Shown here piece by piece: positions 39,112-64,000 of a stretch of 64,000 nucleotides of DNA. The position numbers were made by a program, and so were the translations under genes. The notes under the pieces were generated by a model, which was given only the letters and a program-made list of their open reading frames with translations, made no database searches and had not been told where the DNA came from. The stretch is from Mesostigma viride (lineage: Eukaryota > Streptophyta > Mesostigmatophyceae > Mesostigmatales > Mesostigmataceae). The DNA is taken from assembly GCA_009746045.1 (NCBI GenBank), contig RPFO01000084.1:1548618-1612617 (forward strand), in the 5' to 3' direction. How positions within the stretch are numbered: the first letter of the stretch is position 1; each line of letters begins with the position of its first letter.

Positions 39112-42100
39112 ATGGCGACTTTCAAGAAGGCCGGCCCTAAAGACGGAAGAGGTGGGGGGTTCATGGGCACGGGAAAGCAGTTCAAGGGGTCGGAACGATC
39201 TTCTCGGCCAGGAAACAGTGATGTCCGTCGCGTCGGTCTGTCTCACGTTACCTACTTAAAGGAAAAGCAAGCCGAGAAAGATGCTCTGGAAGAGGCGATG
39301 GGATTTGTGGACTTCAAGGGCGGGGAAGACCGTCTAGGTTGGCTCATGAATATCACAACGGTAAGTCACGCCTGCTGGGCTGCTGGAGCGTATTTCCTGA
39401 AATGCCAAGTGCGCATAAGATTTTCTATACCGCAGGCAAGCAAAGAAAGCAGGCACGCAGAAAGAAAAATAAAATGGCGATTAAGAATTGGTGCAATGAT
39501 TTGTGGTTTTGATCATGGAGATTAATATATGGAGAAAGCAACAGCTGACAGGTATATAAAGGGTGCGGCGAGAATAATGTTGTTTTTAGTGCTGCCCTGG
39601 GGTAAAGACACCATGGACGAAACAGGAGGCATTGGTGGCATGTACTGGTAACACCCGGAGCACACTACAGGCCCTTTATTTTTCTCCCCCCGCTCCCCCC
39701 CCCCCCCCCCCCCTGCTGTATGGAAGCTAGAGTTTGTATGGCCATAGGCTGCGACGTTGCTCGGAGCCGGTATGGTGTACGGGCCATTCGTACGCGCTTC
39801 TCCGACACACACTTGTCCTTGTGGCAGCTATTTGTGGCACGCTGTTTGTGGTGCTGTACCTGTCGTGATCCAGTATGCATCAATCTCCCGCCCCTTCTGG
39901 TCACTGTGCTCCCGCCGGTTTCGTCACTCCCCTGTTGCCAATGTGCCTCGCTGTTGGATAGTCAGCTGGCTAGACCCCACTATTGGCCAACTCCAATCTG
40001 TTGGCATGTTTTACCATTGCTGCACACCCCGTTTGCCAACTCTATCTATTGGCGCTCAGCTCATGTCCACCCCCTTGCCTCCTTTAGCTATATATTATGA
40101 TATATGTATCCATTATCTATCGGTGTCGACTGCAAGCAGAGCTCGGTGGAGAACGAGGAGACGCAACGCACGATGAGCGCGCTCAACTGCTACTTCATGT
40201 GCCAGGTAGGCGCACACGTACTGCAGTGAATATAGTAGTATATATAATTGTATAGTAGTATTTATTCAAAATGGATTAACCAATCAGAGAATGTACTGTA
40301 CAGGAGGTACAAATGGCCTGCCCGCATGGTACCAGCTAAGCACACAACACGGAGGGAGGACACCCAACATGCTTCCAAAGGATCATTTAAGAAATGATCA
40401 TGTATGTAATGCGGCAGGACAAGAGATGAGGAGTTGGCTAACAAAACGTTTCTTTTATGGCGTGCTGATGCGCCAGATAGGAACACGCGGCACGGCCCGA
40501 CGTTGGTCATTATAGAACCCAGAGAATAGGGGTTGGCTCCCAAGGGGGTAGTAGGATGACCGTTTATGTGCCAGGTAGGGCCATGGCTGCCGCATGCAGC
40601 CGCTTCATGCCAAGTAGGTTGGCATCGTGCGATAAGCCCCAAGTGAACCCGATGGCTTCGCCGAACAGCGCATAGCGTGCATCCCCTAATCCGTACGCCG
40701 GGCTTTCTTCTTAAGTTCTCAAGTTCTTTCCAAAAGCTTTGTTCGGTGTTTGCCATCATCTGCTACAGTAACCCTTACTTCTCTCATCTGCTACAGTAAT
40801 CCTCAATTATCTCATCTGCTACAGTAACTCTTATTTATCTCATCTGCTACAGTAATCCTTAATTATCTCATATGCTACAGTAACCCTTATTTATCTCATC
40901 TGCCGCGGTAACCCTTTTTCATCTCTCTACAGCTGCATTGACGTGCCCACCCCCCTGTGCGCCCTGCCTCGAATGCCTCCCATTGTCTGCTGGCCGTCAT
41001 CCCCTCCTTCACCACCCCTTGGCCACGGCGCGGCATGCACCCCCGCAGGACGGCTCCACATTCCGGGCTCAGGTCGTGTATCCGCCGTACTTCTACGTGC
41101 GCACCAAGGTACAAATATGCACCTGTAGGTGTTGCCTTCCGTTGGAGTTGCTTCCCCTAAATTGTGCCAGCCCTGCTGCTACCCGCGCACCAACATACAG
41201 GCAGGCTTCCACCTCATGCGTTTTCACTCGCAATGTGCGGGCGTGCCCTTGGCTCCCCGTTGGTTCTTGTTCTTGTGCTGGTGGTTCGGTGCCTTTGCAC
41301 CACGCCTGTCAAGTGTCACATGCCATGGTTTACGTGCTGACTCTAACACTTGTGCTTGTGCTTGTGCTTGTGCTTGTGCTTGTGCTTGTGCTTGTGCTTG
41401 TGCTTGTGTTTGTGCTTGTGCTTGTGCTTGTGCTTGTGCTTGTGCTTGTGCTTGTGCTTGTGCTTGTGCTTGTGCTTGTGCTTGTGCTTGTGCTTGTGCT
41501 TGTGCTTGTGCTTGTGCTTGTGCTTGTGCTTGTGCTTGTGCTTGTGCTTGTGCTTGTGCTTGTGCTTGTGCTTGTGCTTGTGCTTGTGCTTGTGCTTGTG
41601 CTTGTGCTTGTGCTTGTGCTTGTGCTTGTGCTTGTGCTTGTGCTTGTGCTTGTGCTTGTGCTTGTGCTTGTGCTTGTGCTTGTGCTTGTGCTTGTGCTTG
41701 TGCTTGTGCTTGTGCTTGTGCTTGTGCTTGTGCTTGTGCTTGTGCTTGTGCTTGTGCTTGTGCTTGTGCTTGTGCTTGTGCTTGTGCTTGTGCTTGTGCT
41801 TGTGCTTGTGCTTGTGCTTGTGCTTGTGCTTGTGCTTGTGCTTGTGCTTGTGCTTGTGCTTGTGCTTGTGCTTGTGCTTGTGCTTGTGCTTGTGCTTGTG
41901 CTTGTGCTTGTGCTTGTGCTTGTGCTTGTGCTTGTGCTTGTGCTTGTGCTTGTGCTTGTGCTTGTGCTTGTGCTTGTGCTTGTGCTTGTGCTTGTGCTTG
42001 TGCTTGTGCTTGTGCTTGTGCTTGTGCTTGTGCTTGTGCTTGTGCTTGTGCTTGTGCTTGTGCTTGTGCTTGTGCTTGTGCTTGTTGCTTGTGCTTGTGC

Positions 42101-63836: not shown

Positions 63837-64000
63837 GTAACAAGGGGATAGCTTAGTCAGCAATCCTATTTTAGATACGTATCGGCATTGGTGCCAGCCG
63901 TAAAATAATCCCTGTCTCTTCCGTGCTGTAAAAGGTATCAAGGTTGGCGTTCTGGAATTTCCTGAATGCAGCATTAGAGTATGGATTGGGATGACAGGAT

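What the first reader, a model, noticed from the sequence alone, without database searches (positions are those of the whole stretch)
39361..64000. POLE introns are built from repeated copies of their own splice junctions
In at least 18 of 25 introns (3, 4, 5, 7, 8, 9, 10, 12, 13, 14, 15, 16, 17, 20, 21, 23, 24, 25) the intron contains one to five degenerate copies of the adjacent exon-intron boundary, spanning roughly 10-40 nt of exon and 5-25 nt of intron. Donor copies lie downstream of the used donor and acceptor copies upstream of the used acceptor. Divergence is graded from near identity to barely visible. This is not the footprint of a transposon: each intron echoes only its own junction. 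Recurrent tandem duplication across splice sites, with the outer copy retained for splicing, would explain both long introns and the decoys. Intron creation by duplication of AGGT-containing exon segments is known; repeated echoing at nearly every junction of one gene is, to my knowledge, not a described pattern.
Basis: partly seen in the sequence, partly recalled or inferred. Interest (0 to 1): 0.9.

Follow-up and report, generated by a model that had tools for sequence, protein, structure and literature searches.

The report
Introns grown by duplicated splice junctions
In a green alga whose genome statistics match Mesostigma viride, many introns have grown by repeated short tandem duplication of DNA lying across their own splice sites, leaving decaying copies of the exon edge inside the intron.

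Summary
POLE was modelled as 25 exons (1160 aa, no stop). Each junction was compared with its own intron: 15 of 25 donors and 7 of 24 acceptors beat all 200 local shuffles and all 24 other introns. The genome matches Mesostigma viride. The pattern recurs in POLD (9/17 donors, 8/17 acceptors), six MCM genes and CCT genes (11/25 exon 3' ends, 5/27 5' ends, 0/50 mid-exon tests). None of 46 exon ends of POLA and two alanyl-tRNA synthetase genes shows it. Units are mostly 60-140 nt, mode 94-100; donor copies carry 11-47 nt of exon. The clearest case, just past the window, is a 99%-identical 98-nt array of exon tail plus donor. Copies decay like neutral sequence and their GT is not specially kept. 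Donor junctions echo 5.5 times more often than deep intron (22/39 vs 13/128); simulated visibility bias gives 1.25-fold on even ages, more for old copies. Best reading: recurrent short tandem duplication favouring exon edges, the outer splice site kept by selection. Why exon edges is unknown.

The parts
39112..63836 (+). POLE (DNA polymerase epsilon catalytic subunit), exons 1-25 of a longer gene; introns 1-24 complete, intron 25 cut by the window end
40563..40579 (+). copy of donor 2 junction (16/17 nt), spacing 369
41170..41199 (+). weak copy of donor 3 junction, spacing 86 (4 of 200 shuffles reach it)
45414..45452 (+). copy of acceptor 3 junction, exon part 21/21, spacing -101
46725..46753 (+). 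outer copy of acceptor 4 junction, spacing -218
46802..46864 (+). inner copy of acceptor 4 junction, spacing -109
47187..47600 (+). six copies of donor 5 junction (spacings 86, 114, 142, 170, 226, 482; the first four 28 nt apart)
49170..49247 (+). copy of donor 7 junction, exon 29/31 + intron 38/45, spacing 102
49253..49459 (+). two further copies of donor 7 junction, spacings 183 and 344
50026..50053 (+). copy of donor 8 junction, spacing 52; intron-only copies follow to 50168
50739..50780 (+). copy of donor 9 junction, spacing 96
51037..51078 (+). second copy of donor 9 junction, spacing 394
52056..52091 (+). copy of acceptor 10 junction, exon 30/32, spacing -97
53282..53313 (+). copy of exon 12 tail (-47..-18), spacing 121, exon part only; weak (10 of 200 shuffles)
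53624..53673 (+). copy of acceptor 12 junction, exon 12/12, spacing -97
53945..54063 (+). two copies of donor 13 junction, spacings 78 and 167, 97% identical
54760..54796 (+). copy of donor 14 junction, exon 31/34, spacing 75
55391..55617 (+). copies of donor 15 junction, spacings 99 and 193, and of its exon tail alone at 301
55958..55993 (+). outer copy of acceptor 15 junction, spacing -263
56099..56137 (+). inner copy of acceptor 15 junction, exon 29/32, spacing -122
56427..56507 (+). copy of donor 16 junction, intron part 42/48, spacing 87
57006..57356 (+). four copies of donor 17 junction, spacings 66, 208, 281, 362
58957..59088 (+). donor 20 (a GC donor) and its echo: repeat at spacing 99-100, intron-only copy at 59068-59088
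59858..59920 (+). two copies of donor 21 junction, spacings 97 and 136
61169..61197 (+). copy of donor 23 junction, spacing 204
61570..61831 (+). three copies of acceptor 23 junction, spacings -465, -340, -246
62379..62418 (+). copy of donor 24 junction, exon 31/34, spacing 96
63890..63943 (+). copy of donor 25 junction, spacing 98

Best explanation
Many introns of this alga have grown by serial short tandem duplication of DNA straddling their own splice junctions. SHOWN for POLE and POLD: units mostly of 60-140 nt (mode 94-100 nt in POLE, a group at 114-118 nt in POLD) are copied in direct orientation; a donor copy carries 11-47 nt of exon edge plus adjoining intron; it lies inward of the used site; copies diverge like unconstrained DNA while the used exon edge stays frozen. 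INFERRED: after a donor is duplicated, splicing at the outer (original) site leaves the protein unchanged and buries the copy in the intron, whereas use of the inner site would insert exon plus intron sequence, so selection keeps the outer site. SUPPORTED BUT NOT PROVED: duplications start preferentially at exon edges, donors most, rather than uniformly. MECHANISM I COMMIT TO (inferred, about 0.35 as to cause): duplication by fill-in of staggered nicks or by unprocessed flaps at exon-intron borders, for instance where transcription complexes or R-loops at splice sites meet repair or replication, followed by slippage or unequal exchange between copies that makes arrays.
For: Own-intron specificity: 22 of 49 POLE junctions against 200 shuffles and 24 swapped introns each. 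Directionality. Recurrence in other genes: POLD 9/17 donors, 8/17 acceptors (9/16 and 7/16 if the intron beside an unmodelled exon is dropped); MCM exon ends 9/24 and 8/23; CCT exon ends 11/25 and 5/27 against 0/50 mid-exon tests and 25/1008 swapped controls. Arrays across a POLE donor (98 nt x 3.3, 99%) and an MCM acceptor (98 nt x 3.6, 92%), and a 40-nt pair across what looks like a CCT donor. Neutral decay with a frozen exon side: about 0.82 against about 0.6 identity. Excess at junctions over deep intron, POLE + POLD: donors 22/39 vs 13/128, p=9e-9; acceptors 12/39 vs 13/128, p=0.004 (deep windows come several per intron), while the simulated visibility advantage is 1.25-fold summed over even ages. 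Exon reach never above 47 nt at 19 donors with spacing up to 140 nt, P=9.5e-7 if breakpoints were uniform over the unit. Spacing mode: 11 of 31 in 94-100 nt, smoothed-null 0.006.
Against: None of 46 exon ends of POLA and two AlaRS genes shows an echo, though those loci share dispersed repeats with the window and so belong to the same genome. Local repeats are not confined to junctions: intron-interior windows match 18.1% upstream and 14.4% downstream against 0.9% for controls, and the retroelement part of the window 6-7% against 0.7%. The visibility advantage depends on age: equal for young copies, about 2-fold at 0.25 and 4-fold at 0.3 changes per site, so an excess of old duplications would weaken the targeting argument. 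Intron-only windows show a donor bias that is clear in one test (10/24 within 100 nt against 0/30 beyond 300 nt) but weaker in another that keeps arrays and adds POLD; acceptor-proximal intron-only windows show none. The age gradient expected if new copies form at the used junction is weak: nearest copy more similar at 6 junctions, less at 3, tie at 1. No RNA data, so the used sites are inferred from the protein. The nick, flap or R-loop step has no direct evidence.
Confidence: 0.75

Rival explanations
1. Passive version: short tandem duplications arise uniformly over the genome; those inside exons are purged, those inside introns fade twice as fast, and those across junctions stay visible because the exon partner is frozen. 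No targeting to splice sites.
For: Explains direction, the frozen exon side and neutral decay. Other tandem arrays of many unit sizes are common in this genome. Intron-interior windows also repeat locally far above controls. In the intron-only test that keeps arrays, repeats occur also beyond 500 nt from donors. For old copies the visibility advantage grows to several-fold.
Against: Junction excess is 5.5-fold at donors and 3-fold at acceptors where simulation over even ages predicts 1.25-fold. Exon reach at donors capped at 47 nt. Of 45 local repeats of spacing 55-150 in POLE, 16 span a donor, 4 an acceptor, 1 lies within an exon and 24 are intron-internal; by my reading all but about 4 of those 24 belong to a junction array.
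Confidence: 0.3
2. The copies are kept because they work: decoy or back-up splice sites, or binding sites for splicing factors.
For: GT (or GC in intron 20) is intact in 21 of 28 POLE donor copies where both bases align.
Against: In a leave-out test on POLE and POLD, identity at the copied GT is 0.68 per base, below the exon side (about 0.82) and nearer the intron side. At acceptors the A is at 0.67 and the G at 0.94, no clear peak.
Confidence: 0.05
3. The introns themselves were born by tandem duplication of exon segments (the AGGT model) and the copies are remnants of that birth.
For: Same class of event; tandem duplication is an accepted route of intron gain (PMC4974935, passages seen).
Against: Copies contain the intron head beyond the donor (up to 45-50 nt in POLE, 65 nt in intron 27), so the intron was there before the duplication.
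Confidence: 0.03
4. RNA-mediated: pieces of pre-mRNA around splice sites are reverse-transcribed and inserted beside their source.
For: Would explain ends tied to splice sites and the short exon reach.
Against: The young cases looked at are simple head-to-tail tandems in place. Exon-exon joined copies were not searched for.
Confidence: 0.05
5. Chance similarity or assembly error.
For: The genome is rich in repeats that can mislead long-read assembly.
Against: Controls. Many copies are 75-95% identical, which assembly errors do not make. Two related contigs, 93-96% identical, share the 40-nt pair in a CCT gene.
Confidence: 0.01

Closest known systems
[quoted passage not shown] Hellsten 2011; both as cited in passages of PMC4974935)
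   Same: Tandem duplication inside a gene, with the choice of splice sites keeping the protein unchanged.
   Different: Here no intron is created: the duplicated segment already contains the junction and intron head, and existing introns lengthen. It recurs at about half of the donors of POLE and POLD.
Potato RdRp intron gain by tandem duplication that includes intron/exon structure (Ma et al. 2016, PMC4974935; passages seen)
   Same: A duplicated segment that carries existing intron/exon structure.
   Different: There one event made a new intron; here repeated events lengthen existing introns and the copied sites decay.
Internal tandem repeats that modify human gene structure (De Grassi and Ciccarelli 2009, PMC2812944; short abstract and section headings seen)
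   Same: Tandem repeats inside genes that alter gene structure.
   Different: Headings describe expansion of minisatellites in genes of segmental duplications; here units are tied to splice junctions across unrelated genes.
Introner elements (recalled; the word appears in a search listing)
   Same: A process that shapes many introns of one protist genome.
   Different: Introners, as I recall them, are dispersed families shared between introns; here no other intron matches a positive junction as well as its own.
Short duplications from unprocessed flaps in yeast rad27 mutants and from paired nicks in plants (both recalled; the paper asked for is not held)
   Same: Direct tandem duplications of tens to about a hundred nucleotides.
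   Different: I know of no preference of those for splice junctions; no mutant or nick is shown here.

Membership tests
Intron gain by AGGT tandem duplication | Duplicated segment is exonic and the new intron lies between the two copies' splice signals | tested here: not met
   Copies include intron sequence beyond the donor: 45-50 nt in POLE introns 7, 15, 16, 65 nt in intron 27
Intron gain by AGGT tandem duplication | Intron absent from relatives at that position | not tested
   No relative of this genome was available (one search states none)
Introner elements | Near-identical sequence shared between different introns | tested here: not met
   0 of 24 other introns reach the own-intron score at the 22 positive junctions
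Introner elements | Insertion with short target-site duplication or terminal repeats | not tested
   Not scanned; the young units looked at are plain head-to-tail tandems
Short tandem duplication (slippage, flap or staggered-nick type) | Direct, head-to-tail copies next to the source | tested here: met
   reverse-complement queries reach at most 25
Short tandem duplication (slippage, flap or staggered-nick type) | Short homology or filler at the join | tested here: inconclusive
   Only a few young joins readable by eye: a G run with a two-base filler in one CCT gene, no clear homology in POLE intron 27
Minisatellite expansion across an exon-intron border | Array of three or more units that includes the splice site | tested here: met
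   POLE intron 27 (98 nt x 3.3) and MCM on C2000 (98 nt x 3.6); most positive POLE junctions have one or two copies
Splice-site-directed duplication | Excess at junctions beyond visibility bias | tested here: met
   (22/39 vs 13/128 donors; 12/39 vs 13/128 acceptors) (1.25-fold expected over even ages, more for old copies); two genes only, and the bias-free intron-only tests are mixed

The most novel reading that the evidence does not exclude
This genome has a mutational process directed at exon-intron borders, donors most, that adds tandem copies of about 97 nt (about 116 nt in POLD) reaching no more than about 50 nt into the exon. Introns then lengthen in steps at their splice sites, and frozen exon edges serve as a dated record of each step.
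Probability: 0.4. Interest if true: 0.9.

Novelty: new variant of a known kind. Interest (0 to 1): 0.72.

Why it matters
How introns become long is usually put down to transposons and random insertions. Here more than half of the donors in POLE and POLD carry readable evidence of stepwise growth by duplication of their own junction, with the exon as an unmutated reference for each copy. That makes intron growth rate, age structure and choice among near-identical splice sites directly measurable in one organism. The junction excess and the short exon reach also suggest that DNA at splice sites is itself prone to duplication, which would link splicing or transcription to mutation.

Tried and rejected
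Chance and swapped introns: rejected. Mobile element: not supported, own-junction only. Functional retention of copied sites: not supported. Intron birth: contradicted by intron sequence inside copies. Visibility bias alone: insufficient for even ages. Foreign contigs as the reason for negative genes: unlikely, shared repeats. A length difference between two related CCT copies (about 4.1 against 0.9 kb between two exon matches) proved to be an insertion of about 3 kb with repeated ends, not junction duplication.

Errors and dropped rows: one search listed self-matches and is superseded. One search ignored that loci from the genome search are in genome orientation; one search replaces it. One search stopped before its shuffle control, searches failed; supplies a shuffle. 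One search dropped L023 of 30 loci, six exon ends at protein termini, and three hits of 28 or more as low-complexity. One search left out intron 3, and intron 25 as too short, and POLD intron 7. In one search intron 3 and POLD intron 7 were left out; one acceptor hit (POLE 19, score 28, exon +67..+101) does not touch its junction, and POLD acceptor 6 reaches about 50 nt into the exon. In one search the spacing and reach lists were typed by hand (plus intron 27); spacings above 140 nt were left out, acceptor 3 (-101) was omitted, and the 11-47 range was set after seeing the data.

Paper searches, of which I saw listings only, that showed no earlier description. Only open-licence PMC papers are held; two papers I asked for were not.

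Full report
WHAT WAS CHECKED. The region was modelled as POLE: 25 exons from 39112 to 63836, 3480 nt, 1160 aa, no stop, collinear with human POLE (PDB 9f6k, 1428 bits). The 24 complete introns are GT-AG except intron 20, which is GC-AG. Each junction (40 exon + 25 intron nt) was aligned locally with the rest of its own intron, with 200 local shuffles of that intron and with all 24 other introns. Fifteen of 25 donors and 7 of 24 acceptors beat every shuffle and every other intron, in 19 of 25 introns. Introns 1, 6, 11, 18, 19 and 22 did not pass. Reverse complements reached at most 25 and mid-exon queries at most 28 (one, beside intron 19), against 28-85 for the positives.

GEOMETRY. Donor windows match only downstream and acceptor windows only upstream. 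The opposite direction would mostly put a copy inside coding sequence, so this fits retention of the outer site. The match rate peaks at -30..+9 around donors (60% of 25), is 0 for windows starting at -80 or further out, and tails into the first ~150 nt of the intron. Copies reach 11-47 nt into the exon at all 25 donors of POLE and POLD that have a copy scoring 28 or more, although queries went to -120 where the modelled exon allowed; acceptor copies reach 12-50 nt, apart from one hit that does not touch its junction and one that is intronic only. With breakpoints uniform over the unit the donor cap has P = 9.5e-7 for 19 donors with spacing up to 140 nt (range set after seeing the data). Nearest-copy spacings cluster: 11 of 31 at 94-100 nt (nine of them POLE) and 6 at 114-118, all POLD; a smoothed null reaches such a peak in 0.6% of resamples.

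THE CLEAREST CASE lies just outside the window. In what I number POLE intron 27 (exons 26 and 27 read by eye; locus L002 1959-2283; window coordinate is L002 + 63982) a 98-nt unit made of 33 nt of exon tail and 65 nt of intron head stands in 3.3 copies at 99% identity. An MCM gene on C2000 has 98 nt x 3.6 at 92% across an acceptor, where the last copy runs on into the exon. A CCT gene has a 40-nt pair across an apparent donor, present in two related contigs that are 93-96% identical.

ORGANISM. The window lies in G000:C1702, a genome of 439.9 Mb in 2243 contigs. Contig C1646 is 2,558,729 bp long, exactly the scaffold N50 in Table 1 of the Mesostigma viride genome paper, which gives 441.8 Mb and a mean intron of 1141.9 bp (PMC6947507, passages seen). 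The genome is therefore almost certainly M. viride. No relative was available.

OTHER GENES. POLD was modelled against human POLD1: 9 of 17 donors and 8 of 17 acceptors beat all 200 shuffles and all 39 other introns; one of the 17 introns adjoins an unmodelled exon. The next gene sets use exon ends taken from HMM matches, so approximate. Six MCM genes give 9/24 3' ends and 8/23 5' ends, mid-exon 0/14 and 1/14; that threshold is loose, since the best of ten swapped controls also passed for 5 of 24, 11 of 23, 6 of 14 and 4 of 14 windows. CCT genes, 29 of 30 fetched loci: 11/25 and 5/27, mid-exon 0/25 and 0/25, swapped controls 25/1008. POLA (14 ends), AlaRS a (18) and AlaRS b (14) give 0 of 46; REV3 0 of 2; some of these ends may be protein termini. 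The negative loci share dispersed repeats with the window and have similar codon third positions, so genes within one genome differ. Density of 60-130-nt local repeats follows only roughly: 21 per 10 kb in POLE, 17.5 at POLD, 0-23 at MCM loci, 0-2.5 at POLA and AlaRS, but 22.5 in the REV3 region.

HOW COPIES AGE. Hiding two bases at a time and aligning on the rest (POLE + POLD), copied bases match the exon in about 0.82 of cases, the GT in 0.68 and further intron in about 0.6. If the exon is frozen and both intron partners drift, intron divergence should be about twice exon divergence, as seen (about 0.4 against 0.18). The copied GT is not specially kept and may even be lost faster; counts overlap between neighbouring positions, so I do not press that. 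GT or GC is intact in 21 of 28 POLE donor copies.

IS THE JUNCTION A TARGET? Windows across donors find a copy within 200 nt in 22 of 39 POLE and POLD introns; windows deep in the same introns in 13 of 128 (p = 9e-9); acceptors 12 of 39 against 13 of 128 (p = 0.004) (several deep windows per intron). In simulation the frozen exon raises visibility only 1.25-fold over even ages, though 2-4-fold for copies at 0.25-0.3 changes per site. Intron-only windows, free of exon bias, show 10 of 24 within 100 nt of donors against 0 of 30 beyond 300 nt, but a second version that keeps arrays and adds POLD shows a weaker donor bias and repeats also beyond 500 nt, and acceptors show none. Intron interiors as a whole also repeat locally in 14-18% of windows against 0.9%. 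I read this as real but not settled targeting at donors.

MECHANISM AND NOVELTY. Tandem duplication and outer-site retention are well supported. Staggered nicks or flaps at exon edges are my best guess for the cause and are untested; the few readable joins do not decide. Intron creation by tandem duplication is known (PMC4974935, passages), as are tandem repeats that alter gene structure (PMC2812944, headings); passages of an intron review (PMC3488318) mention neither lengthening nor AGGT under my terms. The listings of eight paper searches showed no description of introns lengthened by serial duplication of their own junctions at this scale. I file it as a new variant of a known kind.

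Noticed in passing
window 41349-45417: A (CTTGTG)n array of 678 copies, 4 kb, fills most of POLE intron 3.
   Followed up: no
L002 3238-5744; L002 7522 to L003 7525: A (GCCT)n array of 627 copies lies downstream of the last POLE exon read by eye, followed by about 10 kb of a 47-nt satellite.
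   Followed up: no
window 1-38000: Copia-like and Gypsy-like retroelement reading frames, mostly on the minus strand; no second host gene was seen among the listed frames (names are from my reading of the frames).
   Followed up: no
window 58977-59684: POLE intron 20 uses a GC donor, and the sequence copied downstream carries GC too (copies read by eye, echo).
   Followed up: partly
G000 contig C2011: Intronless AlaS and chaperonin matches and several elongation-factor matches: looks like a bacterial contig in the assembly.
   Followed up: no
L053 about 3240-6370 against L054: Two related contigs (C1641, C887), 93-96% identical, differ by about 3 kb in a CCT intron; the extra DNA has repeated ends like LTRs.
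   Followed up: partly
L007-L008 (POLA), L013-L016 (AlaRS): Loci of the same genome with almost no local repeats of 60-130 nt spacing (0-2.5 per 10 kb against 21 in POLE); why genes differ is unexplained.
   Followed up: partly
window 47187-47291: In intron 5 the copied donor lies in a 28-nt sub-array, a secondary expansion inside the echo.
   Followed up: no
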